Part shown: one piece after another, positions 38,960-49,353 of the stretch
How the letters are laid out: every line of letters starts with the position of its first letter
Position numbering within the stretch: the stretch's first letter is position 1
DNA from: Jiella marina
GTDB lineage: Bacteria; Pseudomonadota; Alphaproteobacteria; Rhizobiales; Rhizobiaceae
NCBI RefSeq assembly: GCF_024359545.1
Contig: NZ_JAKQZG010000010.1
Coordinates: 1-64,000 of the forward strand
Length of the DNA: 64,000 nt
Direction of reading: 5' to 3'
The notes under the pieces: generated by a model
What the model saw: the letters and a program-made list of their open reading frames with translations, nothing else
Databases searched by the model: none
What the model was told of the DNA's origin: nothing
Made by a program: the position numbers and the translations under genes

Positions 38960-40162
38960 TCAGGCCGTTGCCGGGCCGTTTCGTGCCAGGGGCGATGGCG
39001 GCGGGGCACCGGCCGCAAGGCGAAGGGGTTTGGCGATGACCACGCGGTCGCGGCCCGACCGCTTCGCCTCGTAGAGCGCGCCGTCGGCGAGTTCCATCAG
39101 CAATTCGAGGCTGCCGGCCTGGCGCGTTGTCGCGAGGCCGATGCTGACGCTGAGTTCCAGCCCGGCGTGGCGGCGCGAGACGGCTGCGGCGAAACTGGTT
39201 CTGATCGTTTCGGCTTCCGCCGCGGCCGAGGCGGCCGTCCGACCCTTCAGGAGGATGGCGAATTCCTCGCCGCCCAGGCGCGCAAAGACGTCCTTGCGTG
39301 ACACTCGCTCGGAGACGGCGGAGGCCAGGCACTGGAGAATCTCGTCGCCGAACGCATGGCCATGGGTGTCGTTCACCTGCTTGAAGTGATCGATGTCGAG
39401 GACCAGAAGCGCGACCTCCTCGTTTGGAGAACTCCCGGCGATCATCGCCCGCGCCCTGGAAGAGAACGCCCGCCTGTTGGCTATCCCGGTCAGAAAGTCC
39501 GTGTCGGCCAGTCGTTCGAGCGACGACTCCCGTTTCTCCCGGTTCCAGGCGATGAGCAGGTAGCTGAGGAGCATCGCGGACCAGATGCCCTCCATCATCA
39601 CCAGCGTCAGGTCGACGCCGGTCAGCAGTTCGGCTGCGGCCCCACTGGGGTTCTGGATCGTCCAGACCAGCCTTCCTACATGGAAGAGTGTGCGGAGCCC
39701 GAACAGAAGCACAAGCGCCAGAGAGATGGCTCCCATCGGGCGGTATTTGAAGACCAGCCAGCCGGCGATGAGAGAATAGAAGGCCATCCCTGCCGAGACG
39801 ACCACGACGCGGTCGTCGAAGGACGCGGCAGCAGGGCAGAACTGCCAGAAGACGAGCCACAACGCACCCCCAAGCCATGCGATTCCCGTCAGATCCTTTC
39901 GGCCGACGAAATGCGCCACGCCGGCGAAAAGCGCCCCGTAGCCGAGGAGCAGCGCTGCATTTCCAACGCCGATCGACAGCCCGTTGAGACCGACCAGTCT
40001 GAGAGGCAGGAAAGCCACGGATAGGCCGGCGAGCAGGAAGCCGGCACACCACCAGATCATCGCGGACTCGTGGCCCCTGCGCCATTCAATGAAGGTCGAG
40101 GCGGCTGCGATGGCGCAGGCACCCGACAGAAGAATGAACAGGATCTCGAGACTACCGGGCAT
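38960..40162 (-). CDS. Membrane-bound diguanylate cyclase
   Basis: Makes cyclic di-GMP from two GTP. The first 205 residues carry six or seven hydrophobic helices of the 7TM-like sensory type starting MPGSLEILFILLSGACAIAAAS. The GGDEF domain begins at LADTDFLTGIANRRAF and has the active site FARLGGEEFAILL and DIDHFKQVNDTHGHAFGDEIL, so catalytic residues are complete. The inhibitory I-site RxxD, five residues before GGEEF, is absent (SRKD instead), so feedback inhibition is unlikely. Its stop is 19 bases from the convergent glgB stop. Strongly resembles the next gene; a tandem duplication. Confidence 0.92.
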   Translation of the reverse strand: MPGSLEILFILLSGACAIAAASTFIEWRRGHESAMIWWCAGFLLAGLSVAFLPLRLVGLNGLSIGVGNAALLLGYGALFAGVAHFVGRKDLTGIAWLGGALWLVFWQFCPAAASFDDRVVVVSAGMAFYSLIAGWLVFKYRPMGAISLALVLLFGLRTLFHVGRLVWTIQNPSGAAAELLTGVDLTLVMMEGIWSAMLLSYLLIAWNREKRESSLERLADTDFLTGIANRRAFSSRARAMIAGSSPNEEVALLVLDIDHFKQVNDTHGHAFGDEILQCLASAVSERVSRKDVFARLGGEEFAILLKGRTAASAAAEAETIRTSFAAAVSRRHAGLELSVSIGLATTRQAGSLELLMELADGALYEAKRSGRDRVVIAKPLRLAAGAPPPSPLARNGPATA

Positions 40163-40356: not shown

Positions 40357-41571
40357 TCAAACCGGGTAGGCCAGGCCTTTCGAGACCGGTTGGGATGTGG
40401 CTTTGGTGGCGGATGAGGCCGCTTTTCGCACCGCGGGGGTTATCATCTCGACGCGGTTCCGCCCCTTGCTCTTGGCCAGATAGAGCGCGTCGTCGGCCCA
40501 TTTCATCAATTCGTCCAGATCTGCCGCCTGCCGGGTCGTGGCAACACCGATGCTGACGGTCGCGGTTCGTCCGAGGCTCGTCACACCTCTCGTCCGGCTC
40601 TCGAAGTCGAGACGGATGGCTTCAGCCATCGTCGCGGCAACGGCCGCATTCCCGCCGGGTAGAAGCAGCGCGAATTCCTCTCCTCCGAGGCGGGCGAAGG
40701 AGTCGGTCGGTCCGACGTGTCGACGCACGATCTCGGCGAATTCCTTCAAGATCTCGTCGCCGAAGGCGTGACCATGTTCGTCGTTGATCTGCTTGAAATG
40801 GTCAAGATCGAGCATCAGGAGCGCCGTCTCTTCCAGGCTCGTCGACTGCGCCACGATGGCTTCGCCCTTCAGCACGAAGGCGCGCCGGTTGTCCGCGCCG
40901 GTGAGAGCATCGGTCTCGGCCAGTCTCACCAGGGAACTCTCCCGGCTCTCATGCGTGAGCGCCAGCAGGAGATGTCCGAGAAGGACCGTTGACCACAGCC
41001 CCCACATCAGGACGATCGTCACGCCATAGCCCGCCAGCAGCGGATGGTTGAAGTCCAGGCCCGTAGCGGCGGCAACCCCTCTCGCGACGGAGAAAGCTGC
41101 CCGCAATGCGAAGACCCCGGCGACAAGCTGGACGAGCCAACTCCGGCTGGCGAAGCGAAGCAGAAAATGGGCGCCCGCATAAGAGTAGATGGCAGTAATG
41201 CTGGAGGAAAGGGCGAGGCGCCAGCCTTGTTGGTCCGCCAGGGGGCTGAACATCCAGAAGACCAGCCAAACCGCGGCTCCCACCACACCGTATTTTGCGA
41301 GGTTGGGCCGTCCGCAGAACGCCGCGACTCCCGAAAAGAGCATGCCGTGCCCGAGGAGTACCAGCACGATGGCAGCACCGAGCGAGGGAACGCCCCAGGA
41401 CGAAAAGCGAAGGGGCAGGAGAGCTGCAGACATGCTGAGGGCGAGAAAGGCCGAAAAGAACCATGCCAGGGCGATATCGCGGCACCGCAGCCACTCGGCG
41501 AACATGACCGCGGCGGCAATGAGATTCGTACCTATCAACAGCACGAGGATAGTATCGACGTCGATCAGCAT
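40357..41571 (-). CDS. Membrane-bound diguanylate cyclase, tandem paralogue
   Basis: A 404-aa protein with the same layout as its neighbour: hydrophobic helices to about residue 205 (MLIDVDTILVLLIGTNLIAAAVMFAEWLR), then a GGDEF domain with LAETDALTGADNRRAF, DLDHFKQINDEHGHAFGDEIL and SFARLGGEEFALLL. GPTD occupies the I-site position instead of RxxD. Both genes share the upstream sequence GTTGCGAT near the start and GCGTAAG further up (minus strand), which supports duplication of the gene with its promoter. The ligand of the membrane sensor is unknown. 194 bases separate the two genes. Confidence 0.92.
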   Translation of the reverse strand: MLIDVDTILVLLIGTNLIAAAVMFAEWLRCRDIALAWFFSAFLALSMSAALLPLRFSSWGVPSLGAAIVLVLLGHGMLFSGVAAFCGRPNLAKYGVVGAAVWLVFWMFSPLADQQGWRLALSSSITAIYSYAGAHFLLRFASRSWLVQLVAGVFALRAAFSVARGVAAATGLDFNHPLLAGYGVTIVLMWGLWSTVLLGHLLLALTHESRESSLVRLAETDALTGADNRRAFVLKGEAIVAQSTSLEETALLMLDLDHFKQINDEHGHAFGDEILKEFAEIVRRHVGPTDSFARLGGEEFALLLPGGNAAVAATMAEAIRLDFESRTRGVTSLGRTATVSIGVATTRQAADLDELMKWADDALYLAKSKGRNRVEMITPAVRKAASSATKATSQPVSKGLAYPV

Positions 41572-42261
41572 ATCTTCTCAATCGCAACGGTCGCATTTCG
41601 TCACAAAGACGCTAACTCCCAAAGGTCGAAAAAAGCCTTACGCTACGAGCGCGCTTCCGATGGTTCCGGTGCGAAGTTCGTAGGCAGCACATGAAAGTGA
41701 ACGCTTCGCATTCGTCGGACTCGGGCAGCGAAGGGCTGGAGGCGTCCGGCAAAACCCGTCAGGCCGCGCCGGCGCCCGCCGGAACTCGGTCCACCGAGCG
41801 ACTCGTTTCCTGCAGCCCCGAGCCGACAAAGACGCCGGCGATGGGGGAGACATCGCGATAGTATTGCCCCCGCAGCGACGACGATGTGATCGTCATCCGA
41901 CGTCTCGCCATTCGTCAGGACGAAGCCGAATTAGCCACGATTCGGGCCGACCGGGCGACACATTCTCTCCTGTCGCGCCGCGACTGAGTTCGAGATCCGA
42001 ATCTCCCGCACGGCTTGCGCGGTCGCGCCGATCATCGTTCAACCTGCTTCTTCGGATAAAGCTGCCGAGTGGCAACAGGATGTGGCGCATGACGTAAAGA
42101 ATTGTCGGCAAATAGCGATGATTATTTATCAATGATTTGCGCCGATCAAACGCATACGTGTTCGCTCTACTGCGGGTTGTTTGTTGACATTATGCGTCAA
42201 GAGGCTTCGTCTGACGAGGCAAGGCAGTCTTCGATGTGAATACTGAAGCGGAGATCAGGCC
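41572..42261. other. 690-bp gap holding a dead gene fragment and the promoter of the unknown pair
   Basis: Contains the 3' remnant of a transglutaminase gene (41759-41958, separate entry) and an AT-rich segment (42100-42200). Near 42184-42200 is TTGAC-N7-GTCAA, an operator-like inverted repeat, and at about 42209-42219 TCGTC-T-GACGA. No intact gene is present. Confidence 0.6.
41759..41958 (-). pseudogene. Decayed 3' end of a transglutaminase-like gene
   Basis: The minus strand encodes a C-terminal fragment related to the intact protein at 46046-46939. In one frame it reads DVSPIAGVFV...QETSRSVDRVP and ends at a TGA (41759-41761); the intact protein has DVSPIAGVFV...QETSHSVDVVP. Further upstream the homologous text is FGFVLTNGETSDDDHIVV against VGFDPTNGVTAGDDHIVV, in another frame: one base is inserted near 41872, and a TAA replaces the conserved Trp (41931-41933). 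The catalytic Asp is lost. My hand alignment of 41791-41951 with 46081-46241 gives about four of five bases identical. Homology fades beyond about 41958. Confidence 0.8.
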
Positions 42262-44712
42262 ATGGAAGATGAATCCCGGATAACCGACACAGATGAAGCC
42301 GGCGTATCCGCCAATTCCAATCCGTTTCAGACACTGTCGACCATGCGACAGACGAAGACCGTCGCGAAGGCGGTCTCGGCTGACCGGGAAGGTGTCTTTT
42401 TCCAGAACGCGGCCGGCGAACTCGAAATTCTCGCGATCGGGACGGATCTCGAGCTCAACCGGATCAAGCGGGATGCGGCGAGCGACACGGGCTGGAGCCT
42501 CCAGGCGACGGGCATCAGCGCCTATGCCCTCGCCAAACCCGATCCGAGCACTGCGGACGCCAACACGCCGATCTTCGCCGTCATCAAGGGAGGCGACGGC
42601 AGGCCCGCCTTCGCCCGGATGGAATACGAGAAGGAAACCGACAGCTTCCGGCCCGCCCAGATCGGCGGGGAGATCATCACCTTTCCCCTCGCCACGGATG
42701 TGATCAGCTTCGCCGTCCTGCAGGATCCCAAATTCCCGGATCAGTTCCAGCTTACGGCCACGGTCGTATCGGGAACGGTCTACAAGTCCTGCTATGTCAG
42801 GACCGGCTCCTTTGCGCAGCCGACGGTGAAGCCCCTGTGGTTCTATGAAACCGCGCTGCTGGGCGGATCGAAAGTTCAGACGCTCAGCCGTTTTCGTGCG
42901 CCCTCCGGAGGCGATACGTCGGATTACTCGTTCCTGACCATCGCCGGTCGGATGCTGACCACTTATCTGCCGAGCCATGTTCATCCGACCCCATCCTTCG
43001 ACGACCTGGACGTCGTCAAGGATGTGACGCCGGGCTCCGTGCCCGCGCCGACGACAGCCCGGCTGTTCGAGATCGCCGGCGCATCGAGCGAAGCGCCGGA
43101 AGTGTTCCTTATCGACGACGAGAAAACTCTCAAATGCGCGACGGGAGCACCTGCCGACGCCAGCGACAACGCGACCATTTGGCCGTCAAACTATCAGACC
43201 GTACCGACGACCACGCAGTTCGGCGACACCGTCTCCATCACCAAGCTGAAAGCCGTTCGCTTGGGAAATGGCCTGCCGACCCAACTCTTCGGCCTCGCAA
43301 AAAACGGAACGCTCCTGCATTTCCCGCGCCAAGCCGACGGAACATGGCTGCCGGTGGTCGATACCGGTGTGCCGGCCTCCAACATCGCCGTCACCGAACT
43401 CGGCGATGCCGGCCAGGATGACGACAGCGCCGTGCGCGTGGCGGCGGTCAGTTCGTCGGGCGATCTGAGACTTCTCCGCATCACGACGGCCGGCGAATAC
43501 ATCGTCGAGCCGATCGATTTCGAGGACGATCAGACGGCAAAGACGCTGACGGATGTCTATCGCTACACGACGCGCCTGGTCGTCACCGACGAGAACGGCC
43601 TGCCGCAGCCGAAGCTGACGGTCATGCTGAAGTCCTCGACGGAACTCGCCGCCACCGTCAACAATGTCCAGATCCTGCTTCCCAACGCCTTTCCCATCGC
43701 GGTCACCACCGACGGGCTTGGGCATCTGACGATCATCGCCGATCTGAACGAGCAGTTGGGAGCGCCCTCGTTCAGCCTGGAATCGGACGCGTTCCCCGAC
43801 GGGCCGATGACCACGAGCCCGCAGGAAACCGTCAGAAGCGTCCTGCGCGATGTTTCGGGCGACATGCTGCAGGCGGCGACCGATCCCGCGAGCGGCCAGC
43901 CGGTCATTCCGGACAAGGACGGCAAGACGAACTATGGCGACATCGCTTCGGCCCTCAACAAGGCTATGCAACCGGCCTCCAAGTTCGACGATTTCGCCCC
44001 GCTCGACGTGAATATCCAGGCCCTGGACGTTGCGGGCAGCGGTTTTTCCGTCGATTTCACCGATGACGGTATCCGTACTTCCGATGTGGCGGATGAGGAC
44101 TTCGAGGCGTTCTGGGGGGCTGCGGCCGAGATCGAAGGAACCCGCGACTTCGAAGAGCCTCTCGGCTTCTTCCACGGCGTGAATTGGGGCGCGGCCTGGC
44201 GGGCCATCAAGGATGGGCTGGTAAAGGCCACCAAGGTGGTGATCAAGGGCGCGCGCGCCGTGATCACGATCGCGGGCAAGGCTTATCGTTTCACGCTCAA
44301 GGCTGCGCGCGACTTCTTCGACTTCGCCCAGGCGCTCCTCGAAATCGCTGGGGCGGCGTTCGGGCGTCTGGTGGGCTGGTTGCTCAAGGAACTGGGCTTC
44401 TTCACCGACTGGGTGCAGGTCATCAAGAACAAGAATGCGCTGAAGCGCTACGTCAAGGCCAAGCTGCCCGTGCTGATCGGCAGGCTGCCGGACCCGGCCG
44501 GGCTGAAGCCGATGATCGACCAGTATTTCATGACGTTCGAGAACGACCTCGAACAGCTCTTCATGACCGCGAATGCTGTTCTCGGCGAGCGAAACCGAAC
44601 CCTCGGTGCGGCGGCCAAGGGGCGCTACAACCAGATGCCGTCACGGGCCGCCTTGCGGGCGACGACGGCCATGAGCGGGCCCCCGATCGGCTTCGGATTG
44701 CTGGACCGGTGA
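42262..44712 (+). CDS. Large protein of unknown function, first gene of an unassigned pair
   Basis: I do not recognise this 816-aa protein. Residues 1-40 look disordered and acidic. Residues 40-430 are beta-rich with repeated short motifs of aromatic-Asn/Asp-Gly type (GVFFQNAAGELEILAIGTD, LFGLAKNGTLLHFPRQADG, VSSSGDLRLLRITTAGEYIV), suggesting a propeller or tectonin-like lectin fold. Residues 432-515 (YRYTTRLVVTDENGLPQP and VTTDGLGHLTIIADL) resemble an Ig-like or carboxypeptidase-regulatory strand domain. Residues 635-720 hold amphipathic, basic helices (AWRAIKDGLVKATKVVIKG, FDFAQALLEIAGAAFGRLVGWLL) that could bind or enter membranes. No signal peptide. It overlaps the next gene by 4 bases (GTGA). 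Confidence 0.75.
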   Translation: MEDESRITDTDEAGVSANSNPFQTLSTMRQTKTVAKAVSADREGVFFQNAAGELEILAIGTDLELNRIKRDAASDTGWSLQATGISAYALAKPDPSTADANTPIFAVIKGGDGRPAFARMEYEKETDSFRPAQIGGEIITFPLATDVISFAVLQDPKFPDQFQLTATVVSGTVYKSCYVRTGSFAQPTVKPLWFYETALLGGSKVQTLSRFRAPSGGDTSDYSFLTIAGRMLTTYLPSHVHPTPSFDDLDVVKDVTPGSVPAPTTARLFEIAGASSEAPEVFLIDDEKTLKCATGAPADASDNATIWPSNYQTVPTTTQFGDTVSITKLKAVRLGNGLPTQLFGLAKNGTLLHFPRQADGTWLPVVDTGVPASNIAVTELGDAGQDDDSAVRVAAVSSSGDLRLLRITTAGEYIVEPIDFEDDQTAKTLTDVYRYTTRLVVTDENGLPQPKLTVMLKSSTELAATVNNVQILLPNAFPIAVTTDGLGHLTIIADLNEQLGAPSFSLESDAFPDGPMTTSPQETVRSVLRDVSGDMLQAATDPASGQPVIPDKDGKTNYGDIASALNKAMQPASKFDDFAPLDVNIQALDVAGSGFSVDFTDDGIRTSDVADEDFEAFWGAAAEIEGTRDFEEPLGFFHGVNWGAAWRAIKDGLVKATKVVIKGARAVITIAGKAYRFTLKAARDFFDFAQALLEIAGAAFGRLVGWLLKELGFFTDWVQVIKNKNALKRYVKAKLPVLIGRLPDPAGLKPMIDQYFMTFENDLEQLFMTANAVLGERNRTLGAAAKGRYNQMPSRAALRATTAMSGPPIGFGLLDR

Positions 44713-45995
44713 GCCAGGTTCTGGACGAGGTCTCCTGGCTGGCAGGGGAGGTATTCCGCAATGTTCCCAAGGCGAAACTCCCCGACAACATTTCGCTGCC
44801 CAATACCAGGTCGGCCTTCGAGAAGCTGATCTCGGATGTGGGGACCGAATTCGTCGACGATGCCAGCAATATCGTCGACGCGCTCGCCTCGGACCTCGCC
44901 GATTGGGCGTCCGATCCCAAGGCGCTCGAAGAAAAGGCCTTTACCGAACTGGTCGAAACGGTGATCGAGCCGATCATTCTCGACATCGTCAAGCTGACGA
45001 ATACGGTGATCGACGATGGCATCGACGTTCTCGAGGGCGGCAAGAAGGACCTTGCCAATCTGGTCGACTGGCTCGATACGGAAATCGAACTGCCCTTCTT
45101 CACCGCCTTCTACGACAATTTCGAGAACGTGATCGTCGACGACAGCGACAACCTCCTGTCGCTCCTCGACCTATCCCTGCTCCTCATGAGCATCCCGGCG
45201 ACCAAGGCCCTCGGCGACCTCACGGGCACCTTCGCTCTCGATCAGGAAACGGCGGATGGCGCGGCGGGAGAGATTCCGGACATCGCCATCGCCGCCAACG
45301 TACTGCTCGGCGCCGCGGGATTGCTCACCTTCCTCTACGATCTGATCGGGCTGAATATCGACGCCTTTTTCGAAGACGAGGATTCGGAACTCGGGCCGGC
45401 CTTGGATCTTGGGGAGAACATCGTGCTCGTCCTGGCCAGCTTGTTCGCGTCCATCGTTGGCACCGTGGCGAGCGAGCAGGAAGACGATCTGACGGAGATC
45501 GAACTCGCAACCTACTGGATCGCCTCGCTTTCGAGGGATTTGATCAACCTCTTGATCGTGAGCGCCGGTGCCGGGATTCTGGCGCTCACTCGCGGCCAGA
45601 ACGCCAAGCTGATCAATTTGGGCGTTTCGATCATGTTCTTCCTCGTGTCGCTTCTGTTCGTGGTCATCAGACCGATCGCCGCCGCAACGGAAGCGGCCAG
45701 AATCAAGGGTCAGGCGGACCCGAACGAGAGAGCGGAAGCGACCTATGCCAATGTCGTCGAATGGCTTGGCGTGACCGGTGAGTTCCTCAATGTGGGGCGT
45801 CCGATCATCGCCAAGACGATCGGAACCATCGGCTTCAAGGGCGTGGCGGAGTCGGTCGCCGTCGAATCGGTGATCATCCTGTTCTCGTTCTTGCGAGGCC
45901 TCGTCACGGGCACGACCGTGGCGGTCGATCTTCTCGTGGTCGACCAGTCGCAAGAGGCCGAAAATGACGGACGCGGCGCTGCTCGACGAGCATGA
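44709..45995 (+). CDS. Helical, partly hydrophobic protein of unknown function, second gene of the pair
   Basis: A 428-aa protein with no family I recognise. The first 150 residues are acidic and predicted helical (FEKLISDVGTEFVDDASNIVDALASDLADW and further). From residue 150 hydrophobic stretches alternate with acidic ones: SLLDLSLLLMSIPATKAL, IAANVLLGAAGLLTFLYDLIG, NIVLVLASLFASIVGTV, LINLLIVSAGAGILAL, LGVSIMFFLVSLLFVVI and SVIILFSFLRGLVTGTTVAVDLLVV. This suggests four to six membrane-associated helices. GTG 44709 lies within the stop of the first gene, implying fixed ratios. A third short reading frame begins at 45964. Confidence 0.72.
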   Translation: MSQVLDEVSWLAGEVFRNVPKAKLPDNISLPNTRSAFEKLISDVGTEFVDDASNIVDALASDLADWASDPKALEEKAFTELVETVIEPIILDIVKLTNTVIDDGIDVLEGGKKDLANLVDWLDTEIELPFFTAFYDNFENVIVDDSDNLLSLLDLSLLLMSIPATKALGDLTGTFALDQETADGAAGEIPDIAIAANVLLGAAGLLTFLYDLIGLNIDAFFEDEDSELGPALDLGENIVLVLASLFASIVGTVASEQEDDLTEIELATYWIASLSRDLINLLIVSAGAGILALTRGQNAKLINLGVSIMFFLVSLLFVVIRPIAAATEAARIKGQADPNERAEATYANVVEWLGVTGEFLNVGRPIIAKTIGTIGFKGVAESVAVESVIILFSFLRGLVTGTTVAVDLLVVDQSQEAENDGRGAARRA

Positions 45996-46116
45996 ACTGG
46001 CCATGGCGTGCGTTCGTCTCGGCGGCCGGTCTCGCCGAGTATTGGTCAGTCCGCCGCCAATTCCTCGATTGGCACGACATCCACCGAGTGGCTCGTTTCC
46101 TGCGGTCCCGTCGTGA
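45964..46116 (+). CDS. Possible truncated third cistron of the unassigned module
   Basis: ATG 45964 opens a 50-codon frame inside the end of the 428-aa gene (32 bases overlap) with AAGAGG six bases upstream. It begins MTDAALLDEHELAMACVRL, a plausible cytoplasmic start, and then runs into the transglutaminase 3' end in antisense, where the sequence becomes Arg/Pro-rich and stops at 46114-46116. It may be a real gene cut by the same event that placed the module here, or chance. Confidence 0.3.
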   Translation: MTDAALLDEHELAMACVRLGGRSRRVLVSPPPIPRLARHPPSGSFPAVPS

Positions 46117-46939
46117 CAAAGACGCCGGCGATGGGCGAAACGTCGTCATAGTCCCGCCCCACGGCGACGACGATATGATCGTCGCCCGCCGTCACGCCAT
46201 TCGTCGGGTCGAAGCCGACCCAGCCATGATCCGGACCGAGCCAGACATCGACCCAGGCATGCATGGCATCGGCGCCTTCGAGGCGGGGCTGGCCCTCGGG
46301 CGGGTTGGTGCGCAGGAAGCCGCTGACGTAACGGGCAGGAATGCCATTCGCGCGCAGCCCCGCGATCATCACATGGGAAAAGTCCTGGCAGACGCCGCGT
46401 CTGGCCGTGAAGGCCTCCCTGACCGTCGTGCCGACGCTGGTCGAGCCAGGAACATAGGCGAAATCCGCACGGATGCGCTTCGTCAGCGCGAGCATAGCGT
46501 CGCCCGCCGGCGAAGCGCGGTCGCCGAGCGTCTCGCGAACGAAGCTCGTCAAAGCCGTGACACCCACGATCCGGCGGCTGGGTCCGAGGAAATGGATCGG
46601 CGAGGATGCATCGCTCCGGCGACTGGCCTGCGCCTCTCCGGCGACGAGCGGGGCGGGCGGCGTCTCCGAAAGTGGCGGTTCGTTCCGCTCGACGTCGACC
46701 CGGGCGCGCATCTCGACCGCAAGCTTGGTGTGCGCGCTGAAGAAGGCGATGCTGTCCACCGGATTGTCGAAGAAGTCGAACTCGGCGTCTCTCTCCTCGG
46801 GGCGCGGCGCGATCGACACGGTCGCAGTCTCGACCCGCTGCCCATGGTCGGTACGGGGGCGGATGCGCAGAATATGGCGGGCATCTGCCACGGCGGAGGG
46901 ATAGTCATAGGTGATCTTCAGCCGGATCGCGTATTTCAT
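46046..46939 (-). CDS. Transglutaminase-like cysteine-protease-fold protein
   Basis: A 297-aa protein with an N-terminal bacterial transglutaminase-associated beta domain (MKYAIRLKITYDYPSAVADARHILRIRP) and a core with the catalytic triad: Cys in TARRGVCQDFSHVMIAGLRA, His in DAMHAWVDVWLG and Asp in GFDPTNG. Proteins of this type are usually encoded with the ATP-grasp and Alpha-E proteins and are thought to work in peptide or amide bond formation or cleavage, substrate unknown. ATG 46939 has GGAG 9 bases upstream and overlaps the preceding stop as ATGA. Its 3' end is duplicated in decayed form at 41759-41958. Confidence 0.92.
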   Translation of the reverse strand: MKYAIRLKITYDYPSAVADARHILRIRPRTDHGQRVETATVSIAPRPEERDAEFDFFDNPVDSIAFFSAHTKLAVEMRARVDVERNEPPLSETPPAPLVAGEAQASRRSDASSPIHFLGPSRRIVGVTALTSFVRETLGDRASPAGDAMLALTKRIRADFAYVPGSTSVGTTVREAFTARRGVCQDFSHVMIAGLRANGIPARYVSGFLRTNPPEGQPRLEGADAMHAWVDVWLGPDHGWVGFDPTNGVTAGDDHIVVAVGRDYDDVSPIAGVFVTTGPQETSHSVDVVPIEELAAD

Positions 46940-49353
46940 TCCGGCCCTCCGCTCCATTCCTTGGCGCCTGGCGGGCTCGACAGGAGATAACGGCTCGTCA
47001 GCAGATTCGAGATGAGGCCGAGATCACCGACGACCCGCTCGAGAAAGGCGGGGTCGACTTCGACGGCATCGGCGGTCTGGAGGCGAACCTTCAGGCGGGC
47101 GAGGCGGCGCAGCAGCATGTCGGGCGTCTCACCCACATGGACCCCCGGCAGTACCGAGGTGACGTCGGACAGGGTGTTCACTTGAAAGGCGAGAGCGCGA
47201 GGGTTGAGCGGATCGAGAACCGTCAGGTCGACCACCGTTTCGCGGGAGAGATCGACCGAATAGCGACGGCGATAGGTGACGCTGGAATCGGTGAAGGTGA
47301 GAAGCGCCTCGAGGACGCCCTCGGGCGGATCGCCCGCGAGAAGCTGAGAGGCGATCGTCGCCGTCGACTGCCCGCGCTCCAGCGCCCGGCCGCACTGCAT
47401 GAAGCGCCAGCCGGTGAACTGGTACATGTTTTCATGGGCCAAGCCGGCAAAGCCGGAGAGATGCGTGAGGATTTGGCTCGTCAGGTCGACGATGTCCTCG
47501 TCCTCCTCCGCGATCGCTTCCAGAACGAGGCTCACGATCTCTTTCAGCGTATGCCAGGCTTCAGGCGAAAAACGCTCGCGAATGCGCGATGCCGTATCCG
47601 CCGCCTGGCGGGCCAGAACCAGAAGTCCGCGCTGCGGCCGGTCGTCCTCCACCTCGATGCCGAAACCGGCGAGAACCTTCGCGACCCGCGCTTCCAGCCC
47701 GCCAGAGGTCCAGCCCTCGCTGGTGCGGGCCGCGTACAGCCGCAGCAGCCGGGTGGCCACTTCGCATCGCTCGGCATAGCGGCCGAGCCAGAACAGATTG
47801 TCGGCGGCGCGCGCCGGAAGGGCGCCCGGCAGCCGCCGCGAGAAACGATCGCCCTGAGACGCCAGAAGCGTGACCGGTTTCGCGGGTGTCGCCGAAGGAA
47901 TCCACACGTCGATCGAGCCGCCGCCGCGCTGCATGGAAATTACCCGGGCGTCGCGGGAATCGGCGACACGGGCAAATCCGCCGGGCATGACATGCCAGCC
48001 ATCCTCGTCGCGCATCAAGAAGGCGCGCAGCGTCACCGGCCGCGGGGCGAGATGGCCATCGACGAAGACCGGCGCCGTCGACAGGGCCGCGATTTCCTGG
48101 CCCACCAGATCGACGCCCTCGCGGGCCGAAGCCGGGAAGCTGCGCGATTTGCCGTCGCGGCGGGCCGCAGTCTCTTCGCTCGAGCGGGCATTGGCCGAGG
48201 GCGGAAAGGCCGGGCCGAGCTGCAGGCGCGCGGCATTGTCGATCACATAGCGGCGTGCCTCCTCCTGGCCGCACCACCAGGTGGCAACCGTCGGCAGCTT
48301 CAGCTCTTCGCCGATCAGCGCGCTTGCGAGAGACTGTTGAAAGGCGAGAAGTGCGGGGGTCTCCAGAATGCCCGAGCCAAGCGCGTTGACCACCTGAAGC
48401 GCGCCAGAGCGCACGGCCCGCAACAGGCCCGGCGTGCCGATCTGCGAGCCGGCGAACAATTCCAGCGGATCGCAGAAATCGGCATCGAGGCGCCGCCAGA
48501 GCACCTTGATCGCCTGGAAACCGTCGACGGTGCGCACTTCCGCCCGGTCGCCATGGACGACGAGATCGCCGCCTTCGAGGAGAAGCAGGCCGAGATAGCG
48601 CGCCAGATAGGCGTGCTCGTAATAAGTCTCGTTGTGCGGTCCCGGCGTCAGGAGGCCGACCCGGGTCACCTCGGGCCCGGCGAGGCGATAGAGCATCTCG
48701 CGGAAACGGCGGAAGAACGACGCCAGACGCTCGATGTTCAGGGACCGGCTGAGATCGGGAAAGGCTTTGGACGTCGCGACCCGGTTTTCGAGGGCAAATC
48801 CAGCGCCGGAAGGCGCCTGGGTGCGATCGCCGAGGACCCACCAGCGGCCATCCGGGCCACGCCCAAGATCGACCGCGATGAAGCGCAGGAGCGGTGCCCC
48901 GTTCTTCGCCTGATCGGCGAGAGGCCGCAGGAACTCGGGATTCTGCCCGAGAATGATGCCGGGCAGATGGCCTTCGCGGATCGTGCGCCGCTCGCCGTAA
49001 AGATCGGCGAGAAGCGTCTCCAGGAATTCGGCGCGCTGGACGAGGCCCTCTGAAAGCGTCGACCACTCCTGCCGGTCGACGATGAGGGCGGGATGGCCGA
49101 GGGGCCAGTCACGGCTCTGCTCGCTGCCGTCGCCGGCGCCATAGACCTGATGGAAAACACCGGCTTCGGAGAGATATTGCCGGGCCGAGGCGAAGCGCCG
49201 CGAGATCTCCCGCTCCGGCATCGCCGACAGCGCCTTCATCAACGGTGCGTAATGGGTTTTGAGCGTGCCGTCGCGCGCGATCATCTCGTCGCGCCCGCCG
49301 GCCACATGCTGCGAATAGCCAAGCGCGAGTTTTGAAAGAATCGTGGGCGGCAT
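46936..49353 (-). CDS. Circularly permuted ATP-grasp protein fused to Alpha-E (DUF403) domain
   Basis: An 805-aa fusion. Residues 1-about 480: circularly permuted ATP-grasp enzyme with YGERRTIREGHLPGIILGQNPEFLRP, DLGRGPDGRWWVLGDRTQAPSGAGFALENR, LTPGPHNETYYEHAYLARYLGLLLLEGGDLVV and LLRAVRSGALQVVNALGSG. Residues about 510-800: alpha-helical Alpha-E domain beginning ARAADNLFWLGRYAERCE with its ER motif. In many genomes these are two separate genes next to the transglutaminase. The family is suspected of ligase chemistry with a peptide partner. Starts at ATG 49353; co-translated with the transglutaminase by ATGA overlap. Confidence 0.93.
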   Translation of the reverse strand: MPPTILSKLALGYSQHVAGGRDEMIARDGTLKTHYAPLMKALSAMPEREISRRFASARQYLSEAGVFHQVYGAGDGSEQSRDWPLGHPALIVDRQEWSTLSEGLVQRAEFLETLLADLYGERRTIREGHLPGIILGQNPEFLRPLADQAKNGAPLLRFIAVDLGRGPDGRWWVLGDRTQAPSGAGFALENRVATSKAFPDLSRSLNIERLASFFRRFREMLYRLAGPEVTRVGLLTPGPHNETYYEHAYLARYLGLLLLEGGDLVVHGDRAEVRTVDGFQAIKVLWRRLDADFCDPLELFAGSQIGTPGLLRAVRSGALQVVNALGSGILETPALLAFQQSLASALIGEELKLPTVATWWCGQEEARRYVIDNAARLQLGPAFPPSANARSSEETAARRDGKSRSFPASAREGVDLVGQEIAALSTAPVFVDGHLAPRPVTLRAFLMRDEDGWHVMPGGFARVADSRDARVISMQRGGGSIDVWIPSATPAKPVTLLASQGDRFSRRLPGALPARAADNLFWLGRYAERCEVATRLLRLYAARTSEGWTSGGLEARVAKVLAGFGIEVEDDRPQRGLLVLARQAADTASRIRERFSPEAWHTLKEIVSLVLEAIAEEDEDIVDLTSQILTHLSGFAGLAHENMYQFTGWRFMQCGRALERGQSTATIASQLLAGDPPEGVLEALLTFTDSSVTYRRRYSVDLSRETVVDLTVLDPLNPRALAFQVNTLSDVTSVLPGVHVGETPDMLLRRLARLKVRLQTADAVEVDPAFLERVVGDLGLISNLLTSRYLLSSPPGAKEWSGGPE

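What the first reader, a model, noticed from the sequence alone, without database searches (positions are those of the whole stretch)
42262..45995. Two-gene module of unknown function with no assignable family
Two overlapping genes (816 and 428 aa, GTGA overlap) encode, in order, a large protein with a beta-rich repeat region, an Ig-like strand domain and basic amphipathic helices, and a second protein with acidic helices and four to six hydrophobic segments. Neither matches a family I know. Neither has a signal peptide. A membrane-acting pair (lectin-like targeting plus a membrane-inserted partner) would explain the build, but that is only inference. The module is bracketed by direct copies of a host gene end, so it was probably acquired.
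Basis: partly seen in the sequence, partly recalled or inferred. Interest (0 to 1): 0.8.

Follow-up and report, generated by a model that had tools for sequence, protein, structure and literature searches.

The report
Split member of undescribed lectin-membrane family
Two overlapping bacterial genes together encode what is one large protein in distant relatives across many bacterial phyla: a sugar-binding-type wheel joined to a membrane-seeking helical part, often beside a lipid-binding-type partner, and no protein-family library searched here names it.

Summary
Both genes (42262-44712, 44709-45995, GTGA overlap) are real; no significant Pfam, NCBIfam, PHROGs, PADLOC or PDB match. They are the halves of one protein that is a single long ORF in 36 of 38 whole copies found elsewhere. 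A profile of nine relatives, without window rows, matches ORF1 (E 3.5e-27) and ORF2 (E 7.9e-12); best of 600 shuffles 0.098. Searches gave 58 loci in many phyla. A modelled Caulobacter relative has an N-terminal beta-propeller nearest PLL-type lectins (Foldseek 1.7e-6; profile 1.8e-5), a beta-domain, helices, a disordered linker and a helical, partly hydrophobic C-terminus. The window's break falls in that linker. In 22 of 58 loci a neighbour, nearly always directly upstream, has a predicted TULIP fold (top six matches BPI, LBP, OrfX1-OrfX3); none was found in the window's genome. No congener showed the module; a decayed copy of the neighbouring gene's end lies left of it. Likely function: lectin-guided membrane-acting protein. 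Natural split, broken remnant or assembly error stays open.

The parts
42262..44712 (+). ORF1, 816 aa: N-terminal two thirds of the family protein (propeller-type region, beta-domain, first helical segment)
   Evidence: profile of 9 relatives E 3.5e-27; 27-row profile E 1.6e-36
42364..43551 (+). region of ORF1 (about residues 35-430) that corresponds to the PLL-lectin-type beta-propeller of relatives; residues 94-403 have no match to the 27-row profile (319-403 match the nine-row one) but about the same length
   Evidence: relatives; mapping
   Evidence: no separate fold match obtained
44179..44466 (+). helical segment of ORF1 (about residues 640-735) with the ...FxDWxxI... counterpart
44709..45995 (+). 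ORF2, 428 aa: C-terminal third of the family protein
   Evidence: E 7.9e-12; E 1.2e-10; E 1.5e-11
44811..45227 (+). part of ORF2 (residues 35-173) that matches the family profile; holds the motif ELPFFTAFY...LLSLLDLSLLLMSIPAT (consensus IPVxSxLY...LSxLDLxCLIxAIPxTIxYK)
45273..45911 (+). five hydrophobic stretches of ORF2 (residues 189-401)
   Evidence: Kyte-Doolittle, window 19, 1.6 or more
44590..44740 (+). stretch in which the coding frame changes from ORF1's to ORF2's; corresponds roughly to the disordered linker (726-777) of the Caulobacter model
41790..41950 (.). decayed partial copy (80% identical) of the 3' end of the neighbouring transglutaminase-like gene
   Evidence: E 1.5e-33
46080..46239 (-). 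matching 3' end of the intact gene 46046-46957 (transglutaminase-like by reading)

Best explanation
The module is a horizontally acquired, divergent copy of an undescribed family of large proteins (normally one gene, about 1070-1320 aa, up to about 1700 in a few) that bind a glycosylated surface through a lectin-type head and act on the membrane with a helical, hydrophobic tail. Here the gene is split in the flexible linker. ORF1 would carry the propeller, the beta spacer and the first helices; ORF2 the hydrophobic part; the two would associate to rebuild the single-chain architecture, coupled by the GTGA overlap. In many relatives an adjacent gene makes a TULIP-fold protein that could keep the hydrophobic part soluble or supply or take up lipid; that partner was not found here. 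Shown: membership of both halves, the domain order in relatives, the partner gene and its predicted fold. Inferred: glycan binding, membrane insertion, assembly of the two halves, release without a Sec signal, target.
For: Both halves match a profile made without them, in collinear order (ORF1 to profile 301-729, ORF2 to 834-961 of 1223; repeated with other profiles). Relatives are single ORFs in 36 of 38 whole copies. Lectin head: family profile against PDB, PLL2 E 1.8e-5; model against PDB, PLL3 E 1.7e-6, with PLL2, PHL, AOL, AFL and AAL also among the matches. The head varies while the helical part is kept: Undibacterium has a Laminin_G domain, Variovorax two of them and a PQQ-type propeller. 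Helical, hydrophobic C-terminus. Partner: 22 of 58 loci; of 37 with at least 600 nt upstream, 20 directly upstream and 1 downstream; TULIP fold by model (pLDDT 82, pTM 0.77), all six matches at E 0.001 or better being BPI, LBP or OrfX1-OrfX3. Acquisition: no ORF1 relative in 9 congeners and 91 further relatives; gene-end fragment.
Against: The window's own proteins were not modelled; most of the propeller part of ORF1 is too divergent for a safe profile match, and ORF1 alone found no lectin in PDB. ORF2 beyond residue 173 has no detected relative. The fold search did not name the helical part; the model's pTM is 0.44, and some listed matches are large assemblies that fit poorly (ranks 2 and 7). 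Hydrophobic stretches vary much among relatives (one to seven). No partner found in this genome. ORF2's segments would also suit an ordinary membrane protein, so a non-toxin role is open. An NTGA overlap is expected in 3 of 4 cases when a TGA stop meets an open frame one base back, so it is weak evidence for a designed split.
Confidence: 0.45

Rival explanations
1. A decaying remnant: the gene was acquired whole, lost its partner and was broken in the linker by an indel; the two ORFs are the still-open pieces and do nothing.
For: Very long branch (2.77, median 0.76); no TULIP partner found; no congener showed it; the frame change cannot be pinned to the overlap.
Against: Both pieces are open over 816 and 428 codons with positive codon scores (means 0.28 and 0.38), and most of the conserved motif of ORF2 is kept. 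The break lies in a variable linker, the least harmful place.
Confidence: 0.25
2. An assembly or base-calling error in an intact single gene of the family.
For: Relatives are single genes; a small error in 44590-44740 would account for the break.
Against: None direct; no reads or second assembly of this species could be examined.
Confidence: 0.2
3. A housekeeping-type envelope or lipid-handling system: a lectin-type sensor with a membrane anchor and, in relatives, a TULIP lipid carrier, without toxic action.
For: TULIP fold of the partner; hydrophobic segments like those of ordinary membrane proteins; many members in soil and water genera by record title.
Against: Patchy occurrence (2 of 384 other genomes of the window's class by profile; 2 of 397 others of the phylum with ORF1 alone), plasmid copies (only plasmids were searched there) and varied heads look like an accessory, arms-race trait; the few main proteins examined have no strongly hydrophobic start.
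Confidence: 0.25
4. An anti-phage defence module.
For: Accessory, horizontally acquired, membrane-type effector possible.
Against: No PADLOC match; no known enzymatic domain found in the two proteins.
Confidence: 0.05

Closest known systems
[quoted passage not shown]
   Same: Predicted fold of the N-terminal ~410 residues of a Caulobacter member and a significant family-profile match
   Different: PLLs are about 370 aa and, as recalled, stand-alone soluble lectins; here the propeller is the head of a ~1150 aa protein with a hydrophobic helical tail; sugar-binding residues were not checked
OrfX/P47 TULIP proteins of clostridial and insecticidal toxin clusters; BPI/LBP
   Same: Predicted fold of the conserved partner protein; TULIP gene beside a large protein; OrfX/P47 bind lipids and stand beside toxin genes according to passages read in PMC7020563 and PMC13030710
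   Different: No significant Pfam match of the partners and no PDB sequence match (E 0.087 at best); the main protein matches no toxin family; no partner found in the window's genome
LamG/concanavalin-type lectin proteins (Undibacterium, Variovorax members)
   Same: Same helical C-terminal part next to a sugar-binding-type head
   Different: Head is Laminin_G_3 (with a PQQ-type propeller in Variovorax), not a PLL-type propeller
Lipocone superfamily systems (PMC12419801, passages read)
   Same: Some combine TULIP or beta-propeller/Ig domains with membrane-associated helical domains
   Different: Membership of the helical part was not tested; the passages read do not describe this family or a gene pair like it

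Membership tests
The family described here (single-gene propeller + beta-domain + helical protein) | Profile match of beta-domain and first helical segment | tested here: met
   ORF1 residues 319-735, E 3.5e-27 for the whole protein; 404-765
The family described here (single-gene propeller + beta-domain + helical protein) | C-terminal motif IPVxSxLY...LSxLDLxCLIxAIPxTIxYK | tested here: met
   ORF2 residues 35-173, E 7.9e-12; the TIxYK end of the motif is only partly kept (T kept, YK not)
The family described here (single-gene propeller + beta-domain + helical protein) | N-terminal PLL-type propeller | tested here: inconclusive
   ORF1 35-93 matches weakly (8.3 bits); the rest up to 403 is not matched by that profile, length about the same; not modelled
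The family described here (single-gene propeller + beta-domain + helical protein) | One gene | tested here: not met
   Window: two ORFs; three other loci of 58 also split, elsewhere, and one looks broken
The family described here (single-gene propeller + beta-domain + helical protein) | Adjacent TULIP-fold partner | tested here: not met
   No match in G000 with profile A7, control G864 E 6.6e-204; 16 of 37 relatives with enough upstream sequence also lack it
PLL lectins | Propeller fold / sequence similarity | tested here: met
   For relatives only; ORF1 itself found none
PLL lectins | Glycan binding | not testable with these tools
   needs a glycan array
TULIP superfamily (partner of relatives) | TULIP fold | tested here: met
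   Model of the Caulobacter partner: BPI 5.4e-7, OrfX1-OrfX3 1.0e-6, LBP 1.6e-6; TM-scores 0.34-0.36 over the target, so distant
OrfX/P47 (Pfam Clostrid P47; name recalled) | Sequence match to the Pfam model | tested here: not met
   No such match for P0004, P0016, P0017 or the 20 partner rows, whose best hits are E 0.04 or weaker in one row each
Pore-forming toxin | Membrane insertion or lysis | not testable with these tools
   hydropathy only
Anti-phage defence system | PADLOC profile match | tested here: not met

The most novel reading that the evidence does not exclude
A new, phylum-crossing class of lectin-guided, TULIP-assisted membrane-acting proteins, in which an exchangeable sugar-binding head is wired to a conserved helical membrane module and a BPI/OrfX-like lipid-binding partner; the window shows a lineage that does without the TULIP partner and has divided the protein into a targeting subunit and a membrane subunit.
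Probability: 0.3. Interest if true: 0.85.

Novelty: new variant of a known kind. Interest (0 to 1): 0.6.

Why it matters
A family seen here in 58 loci (Pseudomonadota, Bacteroidota, Acidobacteriota, Actinomycetota, Cyanobacteriota, Nitrospirota, Bacillota, Myxococcota, Armatimonadota by record title) has no significant Pfam match over its helical part in the members scanned. If it acts as inferred, it links lectin targeting, membrane action and a TULIP partner in one cassette outside Clostridium, and would let the question of what OrfX/P47-like TULIP proteins do beside large proteins be tested in harmless laboratory-tractable bacteria such as Caulobacter.

Tried and rejected
Single-protein searches gave little: no relative in the 100 closest genomes or in 60 for ORF2; nothing in plasmids at limit 1e-5 for either ORF; at limit 10 the same search for ORF1 returned one plasmid at E 8e-9 (why the stricter run missed it I do not know), and ORF2 still none; genome contigs and viral contigs with peptide patterns found no relative. 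Three weak hits in 385 genomes of the class (E 0.0014-0.0096): L002 is the antisense strand of a chemotaxis-receptor-like gene by reading; L003 and L004 have in-frame stops and were not followed. Pairwise BLASTP could not show ORF2's kinship (best E 0.029); the profile did. Weak Pfam hits (Big_1, DUF211, MG4, PRD1_P5_C and others, E 0.0069 or worse) and weak PDB profile hits were dismissed, except that CV39L lectin (E 0.03) pointed the right way; Baculo_PEP_C (E 1e-4, below its cut-off, no stretch passing on its own) in one member was taken as chance. A second upstream partner type in four loci (L049, L061, L075, L082) is not TULIP by hhalign, nor are single large neighbours in L044, L059, L069 and L079; the same test meant for L009 and L045 did not run (names did not match). 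The idea that the GTGA overlap proves a designed operon was rejected. The tree does not place the window safely: its branch is long.
Full report
Observation. The two ORFs are present at the stated coordinates: ORF1 42262-44712 (+), 816 aa, and ORF2 44709-45995 (+), 428 aa, GTG start, overlapping by GTGA. Codon scores trained on six neighbouring genes are positive in ORF1's frame to about 44590 and in ORF2's frame from about 44740; between them neither frame clearly leads. ORF2 has five hydrophobic 19-residue stretches (189-401), ORF1 none. In Pfam, NCBIfam, PHROGs, PADLOC and PDB the best hits were E 0.037 for ORF2 and E 0.57 for ORF1, all below any cut-off.

Host and site. ORF1 has no relative at E 0.001 in the 100 closest genomes, nine of them congeners. 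Gene names here are by reading. In the nine congeners the transglutaminase-like gene to the right is present (9 of 9); the glycogen branching enzyme gene and a GGDEF gene to the left were found in the fetched stretch of 8 of 9; no stretch matched ORF1 or ORF2. On the left of the module 161 bp (41790-41950) are an 80% identical copy of the 3' end of that transglutaminase-like gene (46080-46239); no congener showed a comparable second copy, though two have a 58-bp match to a partly overlapping piece elsewhere. The fragment resembles the window's own copy (80%) more than any congener's (75% at best over shorter stretches). This fits insertion of foreign DNA with a duplicated or imported gene end, long enough ago for the fragment to decay. 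The mechanism of insertion is inference.

Relatives. The first true relatives came from the phylum (G765, E 5.3e-10; G498, E 1.8e-6; 398 genomes with the window's) and a Stanieria plasmid (E 8e-9). Each is one gene of 1197-1217 aa whose N-terminal part aligns with ORF1. From these, tblastn on plasmids gave Methylocystis, Streptomyces, Undibacterium, Kovacikia and Variovorax members, and profiles gave G864 in 229 genomes of G498's class and G133 and G443 in 385 of the window's class. A profile of nine of them, without window rows, matched ORF1 at E 3.5e-27 (profile 301-729 of 1223) and ORF2 at E 7.9e-12 (834-961); the best of 600 shuffled copies reached 0.098 and the best other window ORF 2.1. 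ORF1 and ORF2 are therefore two parts of one protein, in order. A DNA pattern back-translated from the motif LDLxxLIxAIPxTIxYK was scanned over the collection of 84,980 species genomes: 53 stretches, 48 of which carry a family member (E 2.4e-19 or better). With the 11 found before, 58 loci with a member of at least 120 aa were studied (the short piece in L084 was dropped by that length limit). Of 47 stretches, 20 are cut by an end of the fetched DNA; of the 27 whole ones 25 are one ORF of 1081-1317 aa, one is split (L051) and one looks broken (L091); the 11 earlier members are single ORFs of 1072-1696 aa. Hence 36 of 38. The scan favours members with an intact motif, so it says nothing on true frequency; in the even samples the family is rare (above).

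Anatomy. AlphaFold2 on a Caulobacter member (L055, 1142 aa, 27 rows; pLDDT 73.4, pTM 0.44) gives strands 5-410 (block means of pLDDT 67-93), a second beta-domain 420-540, helices from 546 with a long low-confidence stretch, helices 677-723, a disordered linker 726-777 and helices 774-1136. Foldseek places the N-terminal part with PLL3, PLL2, PHL and the fungal fucose lectins AOL, AFL and AAL (best E 1.7e-6, TM 0.68 over the target); the list also holds large assemblies with poor fit (ranks 2, 7) and other propellers. The family profile finds PLL2 in PDB by sequence at E 1.8e-5 (profile 311-395). Undibacterium's member has a Laminin_G_3 domain (E 7.6e-8) and Variovorax's two (E 4.9e-35) with a PQQ-type propeller (E 1.6e-13). 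ORF1 maps to this architecture at 35-93 (8.3 bits) and 404-765 (27-row profile, E 1.6e-36); the stretch between has nearly the same length as in relatives. ORF1's last ~50 residues and ORF2's first ~34 fall on the linker; ORF2 35-173 holds the conserved motif; the rest of ORF2 is hydrophobic and unmatched. Fourteen relatives have one to seven hydrophobic stretches, most of them C-terminal.

Partner. In 22 of 58 loci a gene of about 470-620 aa (whole copies) lies beside the main gene; of 37 loci with at least 600 nt upstream, 20 have it directly upstream on the same strand and one (G864) downstream; 16 lack it; one more (L053) has it with 560 nt of upstream sequence. It has no significant Pfam match (20 rows, best E 0.04 in one row) and no PDB sequence match (best E 0.087). 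AlphaFold2 on the Caulobacter partner (L086, 589 aa, 20 rows) gives pLDDT 82.0, pTM 0.77, and the six PDB matches at E 0.001 or better are BPI (two), LBP (two) and the OrfX1-OrfX3 complex of the PMP1 cluster (two), which are TULIP proteins (for OrfX, BPI and LBP see passages). TM-scores of 0.34-0.36 over the target show a distant relation. The window's genome has no match to this profile; neither have G765, G498, G133 and G443; G864, the control, has. Of three partners examined, two have a moderately hydrophobic start (1.69 and 1.39), one not (0.49).

Split genes. Three Bacteroidota loci (Chitinophaga dinghuensis L051, two Pedobacter L067 and L094) also have the main gene ending early, followed at once by a 242-267 aa ORF. 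There the break is after the motif; in the window it is before it. That these small ORFs are the C-terminal part is inferred from position and length, not shown by a profile. A Streptacidiphilus locus (L091) has the family match in two frames and looks broken. Splitting has thus happened more than once, which makes a working two-piece form thinkable, but the window's break could also be a mutation or an assembly error: any TGA stop with an open frame one base back gives an NTG start in three of four cases.

Mechanism. Most likely the family binds a sugar-bearing surface with the exchangeable head and acts on the membrane with the helical tail; the TULIP partner, where present, would handle lipid or shield the hydrophobic part. 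OrfX/P47 proteins bind lipids and stand beside toxin genes, Cry and VIP among them, in passages of PMC7020563, and the TULIP nature of OrfX/P47 is described in passages of PMC13030710. For the window the two ORFs would have to associate. Steps after the architecture are inference. Rivals are a decaying remnant, an assembly error, a non-toxic envelope or lipid function, and, unlikely, phage defence.

Literature. Six searches of the open PMC library listed no paper whose title or abstract start describes a TULIP gene beside a lectin-propeller membrane protein; I saw search listings for all, and passages of PMC7020563, PMC12419801 and PMC13030710 only. Most subscription papers are not in that library.

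Verdict. A real, interesting lead, but re-drawn: the finding is a divergent, split, partner-less member of a widespread family that the protein-family library scans run here did not name.

Noticed in passing
window 38960-40162 (-) and 40357-41571 (-): Two adjacent GGDEF-type genes (by reading) of similar build; in eight congeners both match the same stretch, so this looks like a tandem duplication in the window's lineage.
   Followed up: partly
L049:7240-7998, L061:1491-2843, L075:2-1411, L082:262-1542: A second kind of upstream neighbour in one subfamily: repeats with CPxGW...GR...H.H, some with a signal-peptide-like start by reading (phage tail-collar-like by recollection); not TULIP by hhalign.
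   Followed up: partly
L051:4246-5046, L067:6486-7232, L094:2410-3135: Small second genes directly after a shortened main gene, similar to each other: another split of the same family in Bacteroidota, at a different point.
   Followed up: partly
L009:7713-11945 (-): In G765 the main gene is preceded by three genes without a significant Pfam match (792, 329 and 291 aa) on the same strand instead of a TULIP gene; the 291-aa one has a weak alpha-macroglobulin TED hit (E 0.042).
   Followed up: no
L045:3995-6466 (+): In G133 a large ORF (823 aa, beta-rich by reading) follows the main gene on the same strand; it was not among the TULIP-profile matches and was not modelled.
   Followed up: no
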